A stretch of 64,000 nucleotides of DNA from an uncultured Rhodocyclaceae bacterium (GTDB lineage: Bacteria > Pseudomonadota > Gammaproteobacteria > Burkholderiales > Rhodocyclaceae). Position 1 is the first letter of the stretch; each line of letters opens with the position of its first letter. Below the pieces are notes generated by a model. The model was not told the DNA's origin. It did no database searches and saw nothing but the letters and a program-made list of their open reading frames with translations. The stretch spans positions 682,001 through 746,000 of the forward strand of contig CAJQTY010000001.1 of the NCBI GenBank assembly GCA_907163075.1. The letters are read 5' to 3'. Shown one piece after another: positions 51,850 through 60,755 of this stretch. The translations under genes were made by a program, and so were the position numbers.

Positions 51850-52311
51850 TCATCGCTGGCAGACATCCACCCACTGGCCTTGCGTGACTTCAGCCATCTG
51901 CGCCGGACTGATACGCACCGCGCTGTGGATCGCGCCGGCGGCGGGCAGGACTTCATCAAAATCGAGCAGCGCCTTGTCGAGATAGACCGGCAGCGGCTGC
52001 GCCAGGCCGAACGGGCAGACGCCGCCGACCGGATGACCGGTCAGCTCGACCACTTCTTCGGCCGGCAGCATCTTGCCCTTGCCGAAAGTCTCCTTGAATT
52101 TCCGATGCTCGATGCGGCTATCGCCGCGCGCCACCAGAATGATGACACCGCCCCCATTCAGCCGGAAGGCGAGTGTCTTGGCGATGCGGCCGGGTTCCAC
52201 GCCATGCGCCTCGGCAGCGAGCGCCACGGTGGCGGTGCTCACATCCAGCTCGATGATCGGCAGGTCCAGATCGCGGACGGAAAAGAAGTCACGTACGGTT
52301 TGCAGAGTCAT
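51850..52311 (-). CDS. YbaK/EbsC-family aminoacyl-tRNA deacylase
   Basis: A 153-residue trans-editing enzyme family member that hydrolyses mischarged tRNAs (Cys- or Ala-tRNAPro type). Motifs: EAHGVEPGRIAKTLAF with the catalytic Lys, VARGDSRIEHRKFKE, and the GHPVGGVCPFG loop of YbaK-like proteins. The precise substrate cannot be stated. Its ATG lies only 13 bases after the tracrRNA terminator on the same strand, so any read-through from the tracrRNA promoter would transcribe this gene. Confidence 0.87.
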   Translation of the reverse strand: MTLQTVRDFFSVRDLDLPIIELDVSTATVALAAEAHGVEPGRIAKTLAFRLNGGGVIILVARGDSRIEHRKFKETFGKGKMLPAEEVVELTGHPVGGVCPFGLAQPLPVYLDKALLDFDEVLPAAGAIHSAVRISPAQMAEVTQGQWVDVCQR

Positions 52312-52329
52312 GGCGACCAGAATTGGAAA

Positions 52330-52354
52330 GGCCCGGCGGACAAGCCGTCGGGCC
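52330..52354 (-). terminator. tracrRNA 3' hairpin / terminator
   Basis: GGCCCG pairs with CGGGCC, then one mismatch and three more pairs (CGG/CCG) close a five-base CTTGT loop; on the minus strand it is followed by TTTCC. It is both the final stem-loop of the tracrRNA and a weak-U intrinsic terminator. Confidence 0.75.
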
Positions 52355-52415
52355 GGGTTCGGTCGTTACCCGAAGGTAACACCTTATTGCAGCAACGGCT
52401 CTCACCCCGGAAAGC

Positions 52416-52421
52416 TACAAT
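52416..52421 (+). promoter_or_regulatory. -10-like box inside the anti-repeat, facing cas9
   Basis: TACAAT on the plus strand is the anti-repeat's version of the TATAAT box in each CRISPR repeat. It points toward cas9 and would start transcription near 52428, 12 bases before the first cas9 ATG. No good -35 is present, so activity is a guess. Confidence 0.4.
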
Positions 52422-52427
52422 GACGAC

Positions 52428-52457
52428 ATTCTATGTCCTATGGGTGCCGCCATGCAA
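52428..52457 (-). promoter_or_regulatory. tracrRNA promoter overlapping the cas9 start
   Basis: On the minus strand TTGCAT (52452-52457), an 18-base spacer and TAGAAT (52428-52433) form a good sigma-70 promoter. Initiation about seven bases on (near 52421) would place the RNA 5' end exactly at the anti-repeat. The -35 box covers the second cas9 ATG (52452) and the spacer covers the first (52440). Confidence 0.65.
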
Positions 52458-55400
52458 AAGAAAAATCAAACCTATTTCCTCGGCCTGGACAACGGGATTG
52501 CATCGGTCGGCTGGTGCCTGCTGGGCGAGGATCGCATCATCGACCTTGGCGTCCGCGCTTTTGACAAGGCGGAAACGGCCAAGGAAGGCGATTCGCTCAA
52601 CCTTGTGCGCCGAAATGCACGACTGATGCGCCACCGCCTGCAAAACCGCGCCTGGCGCCTGATCAAGGTAGCCAGAACACTCAAGCGCCATGGCGTTGTC
52701 GCCGACAAGACGCTTTTTCTCCCGACCCATCCGTTTTCACAATCGCTCTGGCAACTGCGCGTAGAAGCGCTGGATCGCTTGCTCAACCCCGAAGAGTGGG
52801 CGCGGGTCATCTACCACCTGTGCAAACACAGGGGCTTTCACTGGATCAGCCGTGCCGAGGAAGAAAAGGCAGACAACGACAAGGCGGGAGAAGGCGGCAA
52901 GGTCAAGAAAGGACTCGAAGGCAGCAAAAAGCGCATGGCCGAAAAACAATACCGCAGCGCTGCCGAAATGGTGCTGGCCGAGTTCCCGGAGGCACAGCGT
53001 AACAAGGCCGGCGACTACGGCAAAGCGCTGTCGCGCGTCATGCTTGGCGACGAACTCGCCTTGTTGTTCAAACGCCAGCGCGAATTCGGTAACCCACATG
53101 CAGGGACCGGACTGGAAGGCGAAATTCTGGGCCATGGTGACCGCAAGAGTGGTTTCTTCTGGGCGCAGAAGCCGGCGCTATCCGGCAGTCAACTGCTGGG
53201 AATGTTGGGCAAATGCACGTTCGAGAAGGGTGAATACCGTGCCTCAAAAGCCAGTTTCACTGCCGAACGCCATGTCTGGCTGACACGACTGAACAACTTG
53301 CGCATAGTGTCCGATGGCGTCACCCGCCCCTTGAACGATCAGGAACGGCAACTGGCCCTGCCCTTGCCGTACAAGCAGGCCGGCGATTTCAAGTACGAAC
53401 AACTCCGCGCAGCCTTGGTCAAATCCGGCCGCCTGCCCGATTCATTCCGCTTTGCCGGTCTGATTTACCCCAGCGCTGCGCAACAGGAAAGTGGAAAGGC
53501 CAAAGACCCCGAAACAGCCGTCCTTTGCAAGCTGCCCGGCTGGCAGGGCCTGCGGAAAAAACTGAAGGAGCATGGCCTTGAAACCGAATGGCGCGGCATG
53601 GCGGGAGCGGCCATCAATGGCCAGCCCGGTGTGCTCGACAACATCGCATGGGTTCTGAGCGTATTCAAGGATTCGGACGAAGTCGAACGCGAACTGCGGA
53701 CCCTTGACCTGCCCGGCGGGGAAAAAGCGGTTCAGGCGTTGCTCGAACTCAGCTTTGACAAATTCCACGCGCTCTCGCTCAAGGCGCTTTGCCGCATCGT
53801 TCCGTTGATGGAAGAAGGCCTGCGCTACGACGAAGCGGTTGCCGAAATCCCTGAATACGGGCATCACAGTCAGTTGAACGCAGCTGGTGATGAAAAGCAG
53901 AGGTATTTGCCGCCCTTCTACACCGGACGCGACAAAAAAGGCCGGATGCTGTTTGATGAAGACATGGGTGTTCCGCGCAACCCGGTCGTCCTCCGTTCGC
54001 TCAATCAGGCAAGGAAAGTAGTCAACGCCATCATCAAAAAATACGGCCCGCCCACTGCAGTGCACATTGAAATGGCGCGCGACCTTTCGCGGCCCCTGGA
54101 CGAGCGGCGGAGCATTGAGAAAGAGCAGGGCGAATACCGCGATCGAAACGAAATTGTCAGGGGAAAATTCATCGAGCTTTTTGGCTTCGAGCCAAAAGGT
54201 CGTGAATTCGAGAAATACCGCCTGTACGAAGAACAATGCGGAAAGTGCGCCTATTCCGGCACCGGACTGGACATCTACCGTGTCATCCACGACAAGACAT
54301 ACGCTGAAATCGACCACGCCCTGCCCTATTCACGCAGCTACGACGACAGCAAGAACAACAAGGTACTGGTGTTTGCCAAGGAAAATCGCGACAAAGGAAA
54401 CCTCACGCCCTATGAATACCTGGACGGCAAGAACGACAGTGCCCGCTGGCATAACTTTGTCGCCTTTGTCGAAAACAACAAGGCCTACCGCCTCGCAAAA
54501 CGTAGCCGGCTGCTCAGAAAGGATTTCGGAATCAAGGAAGCCGAAGAATTCCGTGATCGCAACCTTTACGACACACGTTACATCTGCCGCTTCTTCAAGA
54601 GCTACGTCGAACGCAATCTGCGGCTAGCGGACGAGAGCGATGCGAAACGTTGCGTTGTGGTCAGCGGTCAGCTCACCGCCTTCCTGCGTGCCCGCTGGGG
54701 ATTGCTAAAAGTGAGGAGCGACAACGACCGCCACCACGCGCTCGACGCCGCCGTGATCGCCGCGTGCAGTCGCGGCATGGTCAAGCGCTTGTCCGACTAT
54801 TCACGGTGCAAGGAGCTGGAAAAAGTCCGCGAAGGCTTCGTTGATCTGGAAACCGGCGAGATCATCAATCCGGCCATGTTCCAGAAATTGCACGAACACT
54901 TTCCGGAACCGTGGCCGCATTTCCGCCATGAACTCGAAGCGCGGTTGAAAATCGACGATCCGGCGCTGCTACGCAGCGAAGTTGAATGGCTGGGGACCTA
55001 TCCGGCAGAAGCGCTCGAAACGCTGCGGCCGTTGTTCGTTTCTCGCGCGGTACAACGACGCGGAAGTAATCCGATCCACGAAGAGACGATACGCTCGGCA
55101 AAACGCATTGATGAAAACAAGAGCTTTGTCCGGACACCCATTCAGAAATTGAAACTCGCCGATCTTGACCACATTGTCGGAGCAACTTTCTCACATAACC
55201 ACAAACTCATCGCGCTGTTGCGCGAGCGCTTGACTCTCCACGGCGATGACGGAAAGAAGGCCTTCGCAGAGCCGGTGTTCAAACCCTCGTCATCCGAAAC
55301 TCGCGGACCGGAAGTCAAAAAAGTCAAGATCATATCGACCCAAAAAGGAGGAATGCATGTGCGCGGCGGGATCGCCGAATTGGGGCCCATGCACCATGTA

Positions 55401-55745
55401 GACGTCTATCACGACCAAAAACGGTATCTTATAAAACCCGCCTACATAGCCAATGACCAAGTACGAATCAACGTTGACAAATTACCCGAAGAAGCCGAGT
55501 TTTGCTTTTCGCTGATCAAGAACGAGTATGTAGAAATCTCGCTGGGAACGACGGTTTACTCAGGGTACTTCGTGATGTATGAAAGCGACGGAAGGCTCAC
55601 CCTTCGCGCTCACGACCAACCGATACCTGACAAGAGTCACTTTCGCAGGTCGATATCATCCGCCTCGGCAATACGCAAATTCCACGTTGACATCCTCGGC
55701 AACGTTTTCCCCGCGCCTATGGAGCCCCGCCGTGGGCTGGCGTAG
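52440..55745 (+). CDS. cas9: CRISPR-associated endonuclease Cas9, type II-C
   Basis: RNA-guided double-strand DNA nuclease, 1101 residues, close in size to Neisseria Cas9 (1082). RuvC-I (YFLGLDNGIASVGW, D17), Arg-rich bridge helix (RRNARLMRHRLQNRAWRL), recognition lobe, RuvC-II (HIEMARDLS, E544), HNH (EIDHALPYSRS, D625 and H626; N649), RuvC-III (NDRHHALDAAV, H766 and D769), and a C-terminal PAM-interacting region. All nuclease residues are intact. An HNH zinc-ribbon-like pair (ECxxC in QCGKCAYSG) is seen. Two starts are possible (52440, 52452); neither has a strong ribosome site. The stop overlaps cas1 by 14 bases. The PAM cannot be read from sequence. Confidence 0.96.
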   Translation: MGAAMQKKNQTYFLGLDNGIASVGWCLLGEDRIIDLGVRAFDKAETAKEGDSLNLVRRNARLMRHRLQNRAWRLIKVARTLKRHGVVADKTLFLPTHPFSQSLWQLRVEALDRLLNPEEWARVIYHLCKHRGFHWISRAEEEKADNDKAGEGGKVKKGLEGSKKRMAEKQYRSAAEMVLAEFPEAQRNKAGDYGKALSRVMLGDELALLFKRQREFGNPHAGTGLEGEILGHGDRKSGFFWAQKPALSGSQLLGMLGKCTFEKGEYRASKASFTAERHVWLTRLNNLRIVSDGVTRPLNDQERQLALPLPYKQAGDFKYEQLRAALVKSGRLPDSFRFAGLIYPSAAQQESGKAKDPETAVLCKLPGWQGLRKKLKEHGLETEWRGMAGAAINGQPGVLDNIAWVLSVFKDSDEVERELRTLDLPGGEKAVQALLELSFDKFHALSLKALCRIVPLMEEGLRYDEAVAEIPEYGHHSQLNAAGDEKQRYLPPFYTGRDKKGRMLFDEDMGVPRNPVVLRSLNQARKVVNAIIKKYGPPTAVHIEMARDLSRPLDERRSIEKEQGEYRDRNEIVRGKFIELFGFEPKGREFEKYRLYEEQCGKCAYSGTGLDIYRVIHDKTYAEIDHALPYSRSYDDSKNNKVLVFAKENRDKGNLTPYEYLDGKNDSARWHNFVAFVENNKAYRLAKRSRLLRKDFGIKEAEEFRDRNLYDTRYICRFFKSYVERNLRLADESDAKRCVVVSGQLTAFLRARWGLLKVRSDNDRHHALDAAVIAACSRGMVKRLSDYSRCKELEKVREGFVDLETGEIINPAMFQKLHEHFPEPWPHFRHELEARLKIDDPALLRSEVEWLGTYPAEALETLRPLFVSRAVQRRGSNPIHEETIRSAKRIDENKSFVRTPIQKLKLADLDHIVGATFSHNHKLIALLRERLTLHGDDGKKAFAEPVFKPSSSETRGPEVKKVKIISTQKGGMHVRGGIAELGPMHHVDVYHDQKRYLIKPAYIANDQVRINVDKLPEEAEFCFSLIKNEYVEISLGTTVYSGYFVMYESDGRLTLRAHDQPIPDKSHFRRSISSASAIRKFHVDILGNVFPAPMEPRRGLA

Positions 55746-56634
55746 CGTCATGATCTCCCGTCCGGCGAGACTGCGGCGGGAGCATTTCTCGCTGGCCATC
55801 GAGCAGGAGCAGACGGCGTATGTTCCCTTCGAGGACATTGCCGTGATCGTCCTCAATCACCGCGAGATCAATCTTTCGCATCCGGTGCTTTCCGCTTGCG
55901 CGGAGTACGGTATCAGCCTGTTCTCCACCGGCGACAATCATCAGCCGAGCGGCGTTTTCCTGCCCTTCCTGCGTCATTCGCGCACCAATCGGCTGCTGCG
56001 TCTTCAACTCCACATCTCCCGTCCGTTGGCCAAGCAGGCCTGGGCAAGCATCGTCCGGCGCAAGATCGAGAATCAGGCTGGCTGCCTGCGCCTTGCCGGA
56101 TGCAAAGGTGTGGATCGGCTCGAATCCTACGCCCGTCGAGTCCGATCTGGCGACCCCGAAAACTTGGAAGGCCAGGCCGCCGCATTCTATTTCGTGCAGT
56201 TATACGGTTCAGGCTTTCATCGCGCCGAGGAACGCTGGGTTAATGCCGCGCTTGACTACGGCTACGCCGTGCTGCGTGGAGCCATCGCGCGCGGTCTGGT
56301 GGCACACGGTCTGCACCCGACTGTCGGCCTGTTTCACGATAGCGAACAGAACGCCTTTAACCTCGCTGACGATCTAATCGAACCTTTCCGCCCAATCGTC
56401 GATCTCCATGCCAGACAGAATGCGCCCGCCACGGAAGGCGGCCTGACGCCGACCGACAAGGCCGCGCTGGTCGAGCTGCTCAACATCGACGTCGGCATGC
56501 CGCAAGGCCGAATGTCGGTCCTTTCTGCTGTCGAATACGCCGTAGAGAGCTTGGCGCGGCTGTTCGAGACAGACGACAGCGCCCTCGAACTTCCTGTTCT
56601 GATTGGATTACAGCCGCACCGCCTGGAGTGCTGA
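55732..56634 (+). CDS. cas1: CRISPR integrase Cas1, type II-C
   Basis: Metal-dependent integrase that inserts new spacers with Cas2. The 300-residue product starts at GTG 55732 (MGWRSVMISRPARLRREHFS), preceded by GGAG seven bases upstream; this matches the start of Neisseria Cas1. Catalytic Glu in NLEGQAAAFYF (E146), His in VGLFHDSEQN (H202) and the NLADDLIEPFRPIVD acidic motif are present. The first 14 bases overlap the end of cas9. An ATG at 55750 is an alternative but would lose conserved residues. Confidence 0.94.
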   Translation: MGWRSVMISRPARLRREHFSLAIEQEQTAYVPFEDIAVIVLNHREINLSHPVLSACAEYGISLFSTGDNHQPSGVFLPFLRHSRTNRLLRLQLHISRPLAKQAWASIVRRKIENQAGCLRLAGCKGVDRLESYARRVRSGDPENLEGQAAAFYFVQLYGSGFHRAEERWVNAALDYGYAVLRGAIARGLVAHGLHPTVGLFHDSEQNAFNLADDLIEPFRPIVDLHARQNAPATEGGLTPTDKAALVELLNIDVGMPQGRMSVLSAVEYAVESLARLFETDDSALELPVLIGLQPHRLEC

Positions 56635-56637
56635 ATT

Positions 56638-56970
56638 TTGGGCCATGAGACACGCCGCTTCATGAGACTGCTCGTTTTTTTCGATCTTCCAATGGTCACC
56701 AAAGCCGAAAAGCGCGCCTATGTCCAGTTTCGGCGTTTTCTGCTAAACGACGGCTACGACATGATTCAGTGGTCAGTTTATGGGCGTTTGCTCAATGGCA
56801 CGGACGCGCAGGAAAAGCACCTTGCACGCCTTGCGGATTCATTGCCGCCGGCAGGATCCGTGCGCTGCATGACTGTCACTGAAAAACAGTTCGCAGGAAT
56901 CCGATTGCTTGTCGGCATGCCGCTTTTTCAGGAAAAAAAGGTTACCGCCGCGCAAATGTTGCTCTTCTGA
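56638..56970 (+). CDS. cas2: CRISPR-associated Cas2, type II-C
   Basis: Structural partner of Cas1 in spacer integration; 110 residues with the ferredoxin-like fold (MRLLVFFDLPMVTKAEKRAYVQF, QWSVYGRLLNG, VRCMTVTEKQFAGIRLLVG). I use TTG 56638, with GGAG nine bases upstream and four bases after the cas1 stop, because Neisseria Cas2 has a similar short N-terminal tail before MRxxVFFDLP. ATG 56662 would give 102 residues. There is no csn2 or cas4, as expected for subtype II-C. Confidence 0.93.
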   Translation: MGHETRRFMRLLVFFDLPMVTKAEKRAYVQFRRFLLNDGYDMIQWSVYGRLLNGTDAQEKHLARLADSLPPAGSVRCMTVTEKQFAGIRLLVGMPLFQEKKVTAAQMLLF

Positions 56971-57033: not shown

Positions 57034-60000
57034 GATTATAGCTTTCCGGGGTGAGAGAGGGAGCTACAACTTCTTGGCCAGCCGACCGGCTACGACTTCG
57101 GATTATAGCTTTCCGGGGTGAGAGAGGGAGCTACAACTTGATCTGTGGTTCCCCGACGTCTCCGTCAGATTATAGCTTTCCGGGGTGAGAGAGGGAGCTA
57201 CAACCTCACGATAAATCGATCGGCGATGCTCTCGGATTATAGCTTTCCGGGGTGAGAGAGGGAGCTACAACTGCGTCCGCTACGCCTCTAGCTGATCCGG
57301 CGATTATAGCTTTCCGGGGTGAGAGAGGGAGCTACAACGTTGATCTGGTTCGCCGTGCAGCACTGGCCGATTATAGCTTTCCGGGGTGAGAGAGGGAGCT
57401 ACAACTGAAGGAATACGGGAGGTCCTTCCTGCAGGGATTATAGCTTTCCGGGGTGAGAGAGGGAGCTACAACAGCCAATAGCCATGGAAGCATGGCGATG
57501 AGGATTATAGCTTTCCGGGGTGAGAGAGGGAGCTACAACAGCGATTTCGTCGCTAGTCGAGCAGGGCACGATTATAGCTTTCCGGGGTGAGAGAGGGAGC
57601 TACAACTGGAGCGCATCAAGAAGCAGCGGCCCCATGGATTATAGCTTTCCGGGGTGAGAGAGGGAGCTACAACCCTGGGCGGACGGCTCTGACCTCCTGG
57701 CGGGATTATAGCTTTCCGGGGTGAGAGAGGGAGCTACAACGCTACAGCTATCGGTTTTCAACGCTGCGCAGATTATAGCTTTCCGGGGTGAGAGAGGGAG
57801 CTACAACACCCTGCGAGCTGCTGCTCGATGGCGCGACGATTATAGCTTTCCGGGGTGAGAGAGGGAGCTACAACGTCTTGCCTGGTCTTTGCCGCCTTCA
57901 CCGCGATTATAGCTTTCCGGGGTGAGAGAGGGAGCTACAACTGACGCCGTGTATCGCTGTTACGGGACGGCGATTATAGCTTTCCGGGGTGAGAGAGGGA
58001 GCTACAACGACCGGGTTTGAGCTGAAAGATATTGACGCGATTATAGCTTTCCGGGGTGAGAGAGGGAGCTACAACTCCGCCGCCTGCGCTACCGCCGCAA
58101 GGGCGGATTATAGCTTTCCGGGGTGAGAGAGGGAGCTACAACGTGGGATGTGCGAATCCGCTACACCGACGGGATTATAGCTTTCCGGGGTGAGAGAGGG
58201 AGCTACAACTGCCCCGTGCTGGCGTTCCACAGTCCGAGGGATTATAGCTTTCCGGGGTGAGAGAGGGAGCTACAACCTCGCCGGACTCCTCCTCTCCGCC
58301 ATCTTCGATTATAGCTTTCCGGGGTGAGAGAGGGAGCTACAACTGGTCAGATGCGCTTGATGATTTCGACAGCGATTATAGCTTTCCGGGGTGAGAGAGG
58401 GAGCTACAACCCTGAAGCGCGCCGATGCGGATATCAGCGGGATTATAGCTTTCCGGGGTGAGAGAGGGAGCTACAACATGCTCTCGACGATTCCAGCGGG
58501 CTTGTCTGATTATAGCTTTCCGGGGTGAGAGAGGGAGCTACAACCACCAGGGCGGCGGCATCCTCGGCGGTGATGATTATAGCTTTCCGGGGTGAGAGAG
58601 GGAGCTACAACTCCTTATTGAGGATGGTGCCGACGCCAACGGATTATAGCTTTCCGGGGTGAGAGAGGGAGCTACAACTGCCCCGTGCTGGCGTTCCACA
58701 GTCCGAGGGATTATAGCTTTCCGGGGTGAGAGAGGGAGCTACAACCTCGCCGGACTCCTCCTCTCCGCCATCTTCGATTATAGCTTTCCGGGGTGAGAGA
58801 GGGAGCTACAACATGCTCTCGACGATTCCAGCGGGCTTGTCGGATTATAGCTTTCCGGGGTGAGAGAGGGAGCTACAACCACCAGGGCGGCGGCATCCTC
58901 GGCGGTGATGATTATAGCTTTCCGGGGTGAGAGAGGGAGCTACAACTCCTTATTGAGGATGGTGCCGACGCCAACGGATTATAGCTTTCCGGGGTGAGAG
59001 AGGGAGCTACAACGCCCCCGGTCGTGGCCATCTTGCCAAGTGTGATTATAGCTTTCCGGGGTGAGAGAGGGAGCTACAACATACGTTGCGGCGGGCCGAA
59101 CCTGACCCTGGATTATAGCTTTCCGGGGTGAGAGAGGGAGCTACAACAGCGCAAGCGCGGCGTCCCTGTCGAGCCGAGATTATAGCTTTCCGGGGTGAGA
59201 GAGGGAGCTACAACGCAATCAGCATCAACGTAGCGTCAAAATTTGATTATAGCTTTCCGGGGTGAGAGAGGGAGCTACAACGCTATAGCCGCCGAGGCCC
59301 AATCGACGATCGATTATAGCTTTCCGGGGTGAGAGAGGGAGCTACAACGCGGGCAGGCGTACAACCTTGGCCGCTCATGATTATAGCTTTCCGGGGTGAG
59401 AGAGGGAGCTACAACCACGGCAGTAACTGTTCGCTGTACCGAGGCGATTATAGCTTTCCGGGGTGAGAGAGGGAGCTACAACCCTTCGTCGTTGATTTCG
59501 ACGCCCATGCGCGATTATAGCTTTCCGGGGTGAGAGAGGGAGCTACAACCTTCAGTCCCTTGCTTCAGTACAGCCACTTGATTATAGCTTTCCGGGGTGA
59601 GAGAGGGAGCTACAACTATAGATTCGCGCTGGACATTGCTCGGCACGATTATAGCTTTCCGGGGTGAGAGAGGGAGCTACAACATTTTGACGACCTGCTG
59701 TACCTCGCGGTCAGATTATAGCTTTCCGGGGTGAGAGAGGGAGCTACAACGTCCGTCGTCAGCGGCACCAAAGCCCTGCAGATTATAGCTTTCCGGGGTG
59801 AGAGAGGGAGCTACAACGTTCGCGCCAGTCGGCGAGTTCGGTTAGGGGATTATAGCTTTCCGGGGTGAGAGAGGGAGCTACAACGTCGGTCGAGACGGTG
59901 CAGTTCCAGGCCTTGATTATAGCTTTCCGGGGTGAGAGAGGGAGCTACAACCTTGGCACGTAATGAACGGCACACCGCTGGGATTATAGCTTTCCGGGGT

Positions 60001-60755
60001 GAGAGAGGGAGCTACAACGGACAGCGCACGCCTGGGTGCTTCCCGCTAGATTATAGCTTTCCGGGGTGAGAGAGGGAGCTACAACCGACCTCGAAGCCGT
60101 TAACTACAGCAGCGCGATTATAGCTTTCCGGGGTGAGAGAGGGAGCTACAACTGGAAAGAACTAAAGGCGCAAGTGAAAAAGATTACAGCTTTCCGGGGT
60201 GAGAGAGGGAGCTACAACTCTTTCGATCTTCACCGACACAGTTATGGTGATTATAGCTTTCCGGGGTGAGAGAGGGAGCTACAACGACGCCGACGCAGGT
60301 TGCTGCAGCAATTGCGATTATAGCTTTCCGGGGTGAGAGAGGGAGCTACAACCGCCTTCCTCATCGGCATTGATCAGGTCATGATTATAGCTTTCCGGGG
60401 TGAGAGAGGGAGCTACAACTTCCTCAACGCATGTTACAGCGCTGCACTGGATTATAGTTTTCCGGGGTGAGAGAGGGAGCTACAACCCTGGGCGGACGGC
60501 TCGGACCTCCTGGCGGCGATTATAGCTTTCCGGGGTGAGAGACGGAGCTACAACTGTGGAAGGGACATGCCCGACATGCGCGCGGATTATAGCTTTCCGG
60601 GGTGAGAGAGGGAGCTACAACGCGCACCTCATCTGGCGTCCACTCGCGCTCGATTATAGCTTTCCGGGGTGAGAGAGGGAGCTACAACTGTATGCAAAAT
60701 CGTGCTCGTGTGGTTCCCGATTATAGCTCTCCTGCCTCACGGGATATACGGCAAC
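57034..60755 (-). CRISPR. CRISPR array, 55 full repeats plus one degenerate
   Basis: A regular 67-base unit: 37-base repeat (plus strand GATTATAGCTTTCCGGGG..., ending GGGAGCTACAAC) and mostly 30-base spacers. Full repeats start at 57034 and end with the one at 60652-60688; a diverged 56th copy lies at 60719-60755. The crRNA-sense strand is minus, where the repeat starts GTTGTAGCTCCC as in Neisseria. Spacer 47 is 29 bases and spacer 52 is 31. Variant repeats occur at 60182 (GATTACAGC), 60450 (ATAGTTTTCC) and 60518 (GAGACGGAG). Spacers 18-24 and 25-29 contain duplicated members. Nearly every repeat carries TATAAT near its 3' end on the crRNA strand. Confidence 0.98.

What the first reader, a model, noticed from the sequence alone, without database searches (positions are those of the whole stretch)
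52386..52457. tracrRNA promoter and cas9 start share the same 40 bases, with an anti-repeat box facing cas9
Seen: the minus-strand tracrRNA promoter (-35 at 52452-52457, -10 at 52428-52433) covers both candidate cas9 ATGs, and the anti-repeat carries TACAAT (52416-52421) on the plus strand pointing at cas9. Known: type II-C loci often keep tracrRNA next to cas9, and repeats in Neisseria contain promoters. Inference: polymerases for the two transcripts would collide or exclude each other, so tracrRNA and Cas9 levels could be reciprocally set, and cas9 may be driven by a fossil repeat promoter.
Basis: partly seen in the sequence, partly recalled or inferred. Interest (0 to 1): 0.72.

Follow-up and report, generated by a model that had tools for sequence, protein, structure and literature searches.

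The report
tracrRNA promoter inside cas9's start
In this bacterium and many relatives, the DNA that switches on a CRISPR helper RNA lies on top of the start of the cas9 gene, so the two may not be able to switch on at once; where cas9's own switch lies is still unproven.

Summary
A type II-C locus (cas9, cas1, cas2, 55 repeats) has an anti-repeat at 52387-52421 beside cas9. The minus-strand tracrRNA -10 (TAGAAT, 52433-52428) has a counterpart in 69 of 72 non-redundant anti-repeat loci (shuffled mean 8.0, maximum 15); a TTG-type -35 at 17 or 18 nt lies in 56 of 72 (shuffled mean 0.4, maximum 4). That -35 falls on cas9's start codon (TTGCAT = ATGCAA at 52452) or on codons 3-4, so the overlap is a conserved trait of this lineage. 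Five Neisseria-like loci instead have 126-131 nt between anti-repeat core and cas9 start. The plus-strand TACAAT is real and, in the window's subgroup, the best plus-strand -10 in 9 of 11 loci; but only 1 of 61 other loci has it, and each base also has a tracrRNA-side explanation. 'Fossil repeat promoter drives cas9' is plausible, unproven. The geometry predicts divergent, mutually exclusive starts 7 bp apart, not collision. In a sister group a candidate cas9 -10 abuts the tracrRNA terminator, which would make the cas9 leader antisense to tracrRNA. A new variant of a known kind.

The parts
52440..55745 (+). cas9 (type II-C); likely real start is ATG 52452 (MQKKNQ...), 52440 is an in-frame upstream ATG
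   Evidence: NCBIfam TIGR01865 E 8.5e-202; ATGCAA at 41 nt from the anti-repeat core in 10 of 11 A1 loci, ATACAA in the eleventh, L037
52387..52421 (-). anti-repeat of tracrRNA; 52421 is the likely tracrRNA +1 (A on the minus strand)
   Evidence: inverted repeat with array repeats; cofold with repeat -53.7 kcal/mol; +1 inferred by spacing
52320..52421 (-). tracrRNA gene: anti-repeat, second hairpin about 52364-52379, terminator-like hairpin 52330-52354 with only a short T run
   Evidence: hairpin alignment, fold; the consensus terminator scan lists none here
52428..52433 (-). tracrRNA -10 TAGAAT
   Evidence: counterpart in 69 of 72 loci against at most 15 in shuffles
52452..52457 (-). tracrRNA -35 TTGCAT = reverse complement of cas9 start codon plus Gln (ATGCAA)
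   Evidence: 3 of 6 to consensus, but TTG kept at 17 or 18 nt in 56 of 72 loci; codon 2 is CAA in 10 of 10 scored A1 loci
52416..52421 (+). TACAAT: candidate cas9 -10, counterpart of the repeat's terminal TATAAT; predicted start about 52428, 24-nt leader
   Evidence: top-3 plus-strand site in 11 of 11 A1 loci; absent in groups B and C
55609..56634 (+). cas1 (type II); start chosen by me within ORF 55579-56634
   Evidence: TIGR03639 E 2e-78
56638..56970 (+). cas2
   Evidence: TIGR01573 E 8.4e-20
57035..60688 (-). CRISPR array, 55 repeats of 36 nt (52 identical), crRNA strand inferred to be minus; repeat 3' end GCTATAAT
   Evidence: Rfam RF01344 hits on the minus strand; repeat count
51850..52311 (-). 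YbaK/EbsC-like gene next to the tracrRNA gene; its direction leaves cas9 no co-directional neighbour just upstream
   Evidence: TIGR00011 E 4.9e-18, below its curated cut-off

Best explanation
The window holds a compact type II-C control region. A sigma-70-type tracrRNA promoter reads leftward from inside the cas9 start: its -35 is written by the cas9 start codon and second codon, its -10 lies in the cas9 leader (conservation shown; firing inferred; about 0.9). cas9 is most likely transcribed rightward from the anti-repeat's own plus-strand -10, TACAAT, a leftover of the CRISPR repeat from which the anti-repeat derives, starting near 52428 (inferred; about 0.4). The two boxes form an inverted pair, TACAAT-N6-ATTCTA, in which each start base is the other's -7 base, so only one open complex can form at a time; tracrRNA and cas9 transcription would exclude each other at initiation and diverge, without collision or antisense overlap (inferred from geometry).
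For: Promoter half: -10 in 69 of 72 loci and TTG -35 at 17 or 18 nt in 56 of 72, against shuffled maxima of 15 and 4. The -35 lies on ATGCAA in A1 and on codons 3-4 in B, where codon 3 ends in C in 23 of 24 and codon 4 begins with AA in 23 of 24 scored loci. cas9 codon 2 is CAA in 10 of 10 scored A1 loci although CAA is 52 of 134 Gln codons in the stretches held. Core-to-start distance is at most 75 nt in 59 of 70 loci with a cas9 match. cas9 half: no co-directional gene just upstream in the window; TACAAT is the best plus-strand site in 9 of 11 A1 loci and in the top 3 of 11 of 11; TACAATG is invariant in A1 while the bases between it and the -10 vary; in the 24 nt left of the tracrRNA hairpin A1 has no -10 scoring 5 or more (0 of 11); the repeat ends in TA[C/T]AAT in 19 of 20 loci whose repeat the script caught; in C. 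jejuni, mapped starts lie in each spacer behind a repeat end resembling an extended -10 (PMC3656092, passages read).
Against: No transcript data. Every base of TACAATG can be kept for tracrRNA reasons. The plus box has no -35 and no TGn. It is lost in 3 of 5 same-genus loci and in groups B and C. In a wider scan (about 260 nt left of the core) stronger plus sites lie further left in two A1 loci: L009 (TAGTAT, with two more above TACAAT, which ranks fourth) and L030 (TTGACA-16-TGAACT, TACAAT second). The -35 TTGCAT matches only 3 of 6; 16 of 72 loci lack TTG at 17 or 18 nt, including 8 of 15 in group C. Related loci are not independent counts. CAA at codon 2 may reflect the usual A-rich gene start, and C-ending codons are common in group B genes (GAC 767 of 1113 Asp, GGC 852 of 1328 Gly codons). 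In two loci without a cas9 match the evidence splits: L090 keeps the minus promoter and lacks the plus box, L110 has TACAAT and no minus -10. The -10/-35 matrices are E. coli frequencies from memory.
Confidence: 0.4

Rival explanations
1. TACAAT is only a by-product of anti-repeat pairing and of the tracrRNA start site. cas9 is transcribed from further left, through the tracrRNA gene, so its leader is antisense to tracrRNA. This looks likely in part of sister group B, where a TAnAAT/CATAAT box abuts the tracrRNA terminator hairpin.
For: Group B: a -10 scoring at least 5 within 24 nt left of the hairpin in 15 of 28 (14 of them 8-12 nt from it, L057 at 24), against 0 of 11 (A1) and 0 of 15 (C); Mann-Whitney p 2.6e-5, not corrected for relatedness. 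Four have TTGCnn-17-CATAAT (L021, L028, L051, L112). Constraints on TACAATG are fully explained by tracrRNA needs. L009 and L030 in A1 have stronger plus sites left of the tracrRNA gene.
Against: In the window and A1 the best -10 in the 24 nt left of the hairpin is chance-like (median shuffle P 0.43). In the window the space left of the terminator is the start of a minus-strand gene. Within B the top plus-strand site lies elsewhere in 17 of 28 loci.
Confidence: 0.25
2. The tracrRNA -10 itself works in both directions (a symmetric bidirectional promoter, starts 18 bp apart), so cas9 starts near 52439 with a leader of about 12 nt.
For: In group C the base left of the -10 complement is T in 15 of 15 loci, making TATTnTA (T in 2 of 11 in A1, 2 of 28 in B); the symmetric site is in the top 3 plus-strand sites in 11 of 15 C loci. 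The 18-bp arrangement is an established bacterial type (PMC10268837 passages).
Against: In the window the plus-strand hexamer is CATTCT; the site's median rank in A1 is 10 (rank 0 = best). In C a TATTGT in the tracrRNA body ranks as well (top 3 in 12 of 15).
Confidence: 0.15
3. Ordinary compaction: whichever promoter cas9 uses, the overlap has no regulatory meaning; both promoters are weak and rarely compete. This does not exclude the other readings of where cas9 starts.
For: For five E. coli bidirectional promoters basal firing was too low for competition (PMC12825309, abstract and Discussion read). The window's boxes are weak by consensus.
Against: Spacing is held constant (41 nt in 11 of 11 A1 loci) and the boxes survive divergence of the bases between them; this shows function of the boxes, not competition.
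Confidence: 0.4

Closest known systems
Type II-C locus of Neisseria meningitidis / Pasteurella multocida type
   Same: tracrRNA near the cas genes, array read against the cas operon (PMC3936727, passages); repeat-derived anti-repeat with a -10-like end
   Different: In five Neisseria-like loci seen here (L064-L067, L071; family f44, the name is my inference from recalled sequence) the anti-repeat core is 126-131 nt from the cas9 start; four of them have TTGACA or TTGACT at 17 nt from TAGAAT, outside cas9. For N. meningitidis a separate cas9 promoter is drawn (legend in PMC13431127 section read)
Repeat-borne crRNA promoters of Campylobacter jejuni
   Different: Here the candidate is a repeat-derived anti-repeat that would drive a cas gene; the C. 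jejuni box resembles an extended -10 (GGTAAAAT), here there is no TGn (PMC3656092)
Bidirectional (symmetric) bacterial promoters
   Same: Two opposed -10 boxes sharing bases, starts 7-25 bp apart, RNA polymerase can engage one orientation at a time (PMC10268837, PMC12825309)
   Different: Here the pair links a guide-RNA cofactor to its own nuclease, and one box is constrained by RNA pairing; the A1 spacing (7 bp) is at the lower limit
tracr-L repression of Pcas in type II-A (S. pyogenes)
   Same: tracrRNA-linked control of cas expression
   Different: There Cas9 guided by tracr-L binds Pcas (PMC11417352, passages); here promoter geometry only, no guide sequence was sought or shown

Membership tests
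Type II-C CRISPR-Cas | cas9, cas1, cas2 only, no csn2 or cas4 in the operon | tested here: met
   cas9, cas1, cas2 by NCBIfam; they run directly into the array with no further gene between. Flanking ORFs outside were not scanned
Type II-C CRISPR-Cas | tracrRNA with anti-repeat near the locus | tested here: met
   anti-repeat 52387-52421, cofold with repeat -53.7 kcal/mol
Sigma-70-type tracrRNA promoter | -10 and -35 at 16-18 nt spacing, conserved | tested here: met
   69 of 72 and 56 of 72 loci; the window's own -35 is weak (3 of 6)
Repeat-borne promoter acting on cas9 | transcript starting 7 nt right of TACAAT | not testable with these tools
   needs 5'-end mapping
Repeat-borne promoter acting on cas9 | box kept in relatives that keep the same arrangement | tested here: inconclusive
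   A1 11 of 11 (11 of 13 with L055 and L090), B 0 of 28, C 0 of 15; constraint confounded with tracrRNA
Bidirectional promoter (18-bp type) | A at -11 and T at -7 on both strands over one -10, here also asked: T at -12 on both strands | tested here: inconclusive
   -11A and -7T coincide in the window, but -12 on the plus strand is C (CATTCT); group C has T in 15 of 15

The most novel reading that the evidence does not exclude
cas9 in this lineage has no dedicated promoter but has been re-equipped at least three ways around one fixed tracrRNA module: the repeat relic (A1), the symmetric reverse of the tracrRNA -10 (C), or a box at the tracrRNA terminator (B), which would give cas9 mRNA a leader that is a full antisense of tracrRNA and carries a crRNA-repeat mimic, a possible RNase III or Cas9 feedback target.
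Probability: 0.25. Interest if true: 0.7.

Novelty: new variant of a known kind. Interest (0 to 1): 0.5.

Why it matters
If the overlap acts as a switch, the ratio of Cas9 to its RNA cofactor is set by competition for one stretch of DNA, with no regulator protein. It also offers a case in which a CRISPR repeat relic may have become the promoter of a cas gene, and natural variants (A1, B, C, Neisseria-like) that would let this be tested with simple reporters. For Cas9 mining, it warns that the first codons of some cas9 genes may also carry the tracrRNA promoter, so trimming or recoding them may silence tracrRNA.

Tried and rejected
Collision of the two polymerases: rejected for the window, because the inferred starts diverge. 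cas9 start at 52440: rejected as the likely start; 52452 is kept as ATGCAA. A plus -10 next to the terminator in the window's group: not found (0 of 11 in 24 nt), though two A1 loci have stronger sites further left. Read-through from an upstream gene: unlikely, the gene just upstream is on the minus strand. Treating loss of TACAAT in group B (TACAAT to CACAAC) as selection against a promoter: rejected, because T1 and T6 are just the bases that can change while keeping G-U pairs with the repeat. Codon tests were kept as weak support only. The search for related loci in genome contigs gave one distant relative (33%, L001), not used. A further -10-like TATTGT in the tracrRNA body ranks high in B and C, set by tracrRNA sequence; it cannot be excluded as a cas9 promoter there. 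Literature: the listings showed no title or abstract start describing this overlap; three lists were capped (20 of 64, 20 of 137, 12 of 61) and the key Neisseria paper (PMC3694421) is not held, so absence from print is not established.

Rows dropped: from 72 anti-repeat loci, groups A1 (11), C (15) and B (28) leave 18 out: L055 and L090 from A1; L038, L039, L052 from B; L011, L023, L056, L060, L062, L064-L068, L071, L074, L110 from the rest. I drew the groups from sequence features before the tree; A1 was drawn partly on the look of the region that holds TACAAT, so its 11 of 11 is not a blind count. In the tree (65 rows) the ten A1 loci present (L043 is not in it) are not one clade by Cas9: six lie in the window's 31-row fork, L035-L037 and L047 elsewhere (some of these placings are flagged as long branches). 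A1 is a shared upstream module and its loci are not independent. Codon test: 10 of 11 A1 loci (L037 lacks ATG there) and 24 of 28 B loci (those with an ORF found). In the distance count the script printed 60 of 70; one of these (L052, projected at -607) is an artefact of a partial match, so I give 59 of 70.

Full report
What is there. The window carries a type II-C CRISPR-Cas locus: cas9 (52440 or 52452 to 55745, plus), cas1, cas2 and an array of 55 repeats of 36 nt at 57035-60688. The Rfam repeat model lies on the minus strand, so crRNAs are inferred to be read right to left. Left of cas9, at 52387-52421, is an anti-repeat (83-86% complementary to repeats over the 35-nt arms listed), followed leftward by two hairpins, the second terminator-like (52330-52354), though the consensus terminator scan lists none. 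The repeat and this anti-repeat cofold at -53.7 kcal/mol. This is a tracrRNA gene read leftward, away from cas9. The gene to its left (51850-52311, YbaK-like, below its curated cut-off) is also on the minus strand, so cas9 has no co-directional neighbour just upstream and probably needs a promoter in or near the tracrRNA gene.

The observation. The boxes are as described. Alone they are weak: no site in 52200-52600 reaches 9 of 12, and the -35 TTGCAT matches 3 of 6. I therefore compared relatives. Cas9 relatives occur in 57 of 297 family genomes and 45 of 399 order genomes, some shared with the first set; an anti-repeat pattern occurs in 59 of 395 family genomes. After fetching more regions there were 72 anti-repeat loci, non-redundant over the first 60 nt downstream.

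The tracrRNA promoter is conserved. A minus-strand -10 lies 15-20 nt right of the CCCCGG core in 69 of 72 loci (shuffled mean 8.0, maximum 15); a -35 with TTG at 17 or 18 nt in 56 of 72 (shuffled mean 0.4, maximum 4). The 16 loci without that TTG include 8 of 15 in group C. cas9's projected start lies within 75 nt of the core in 59 of the 70 loci with a cas9 match. In the window's subgroup A1 the -35 is the reverse complement of start codon plus Gln (ATGCAA), at 18 nt; in most of group B it falls on codons 3-4 at 17 nt. Codon use fits a double burden: CAA at codon 2 in 10 of 10 scored A1 loci against 52 of 134 elsewhere in the stretches held; codon 3 ends in C in 23 of 24 scored B loci. Relatedness, the A-rich start of genes and a general liking for C-ending codons weaken this. 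The conserved ATGCAA also says that 52452, not 52440, is the likely start. Overlap is not universal: Neisseria-like loci L064-L067 and L071 have 126-131 nt between core and start, and in same-genus L038 the distance is 864 nt.

Where does cas9 start? Three patterns appear. In A1 (11 loci) the anti-repeat's plus strand reads TACAAT in 11 of 11, the top plus-strand site in 9 and in the top three in 11; in a wider scan it is first in 9, second in L030 and fourth in L009, where stronger sites lie left of the tracrRNA gene. In group C (15) that box is gone (0 of 15), but the base left of the tracrRNA -10 complement is T in 15 of 15, making TATTnTA, the symmetric form known from bidirectional promoters (PMC10268837, passages). 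In group B (28) the anti-repeat box is gone too (0 of 28), and a -10 scoring at least 5 lies within 24 nt left of the tracrRNA terminator hairpin in 15 of 28, 14 of them abutting it at 8-12 nt (0 of 26 in A1 and C). If the B box works, the cas9 leader is antisense to the whole tracrRNA. These patterns suggest, but do not show, that cas9 found its promoter in different ways. Against it: the top plus-strand site is none of the named places in 2 of 11 A1, 6 of 15 C and 15 of 28 B loci, and a -10-like TATTGT in the tracrRNA body is in the top three in 12 of 15 C and 20 of 28 B loci, so hexamer ranks alone cannot decide.

The fossil promoter. For it: repeats end in TA[C/T]AAT in 19 of 20 loci whose repeat the script caught, and the window's anti-repeat shares 23 identical nt with the repeat 3' half of six relatives; in C. 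jejuni starts were mapped in each spacer behind a repeat end resembling an extended -10 (PMC3656092, passages). Against it: TACAA pairs with the repeat, the last T is tracrRNA +1 and the next G is its -1, so tracrRNA alone could keep TACAATG; there is no -35 and no TGn; outside A1 only 1 of 61 loci has TACAAT (L110, without a cas9 match); and only 2 of 5 same-genus loci keep it while all 5 keep the minus -10. I give it about 0.4 for the window.

Mechanism. In A1 the two boxes form TACAAT-N6-ATTCTA, an inverted pair (perfect in L009: TACAATGACAATATTGTA). With +1 seven bases beyond each box, the tracrRNA +1 is the plus -7 and the plus +1 is the tracrRNA -7. Both complexes cannot be open at once; the transcripts diverge, so exclusion, not collision, is the prediction. 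Work on five E. coli bidirectional promoters found no competition at basal strength and competition once one direction is activated (PMC12825309, abstract and Discussion); reciprocal control here would thus need a strong promoter. This is inference.

Known and new. tracrRNA position and direction vary within II-C (PMC3936727, passages), and repeat promoters and bidirectional promoters are known. The new part is the conserved placing of the tracrRNA promoter on the cas9 start codon and the three-way pattern of candidate cas9 promoters. The listings of my literature searches showed no description of it, but some lists were capped and the main Neisseria transcript paper is not held.

Noticed in passing
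L047, L049, L050, L051 (genomes G258, G252, G184, G225): The tracrRNA and cas9-start module is of the usual type while the rest of Cas9 is far diverged (longest matches 38-39% identical, open frames 933-1549 aa), as if Cas9 were exchanged behind a kept start.
   Followed up: partly
L090 (G153): The anti-repeat, tracrRNA promoter and ATGCAA start are present but no match to the Cas9 N-terminal 240 residues follows in 1,100 nt; the frame stops after 51 codons.
   Followed up: partly
L038 (same genus, G052): The anti-repeat core lies 864 nt from the projected cas9 start, so the compact overlap is broken there while the minus -10 is kept.
   Followed up: no
window 60715-60745: A degenerate repeat (GATTATAGCTCTCC...) follows the last full repeat at the array's right end.
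   Followed up: no
window 52420-52422: The plus TACAATG makes an out-of-frame ATG 32 nt before the cas9 start; G after TACAAT is kept in 11 of 11 A1 loci, but the frame stops early in some (L009, L043).
   Followed up: partly
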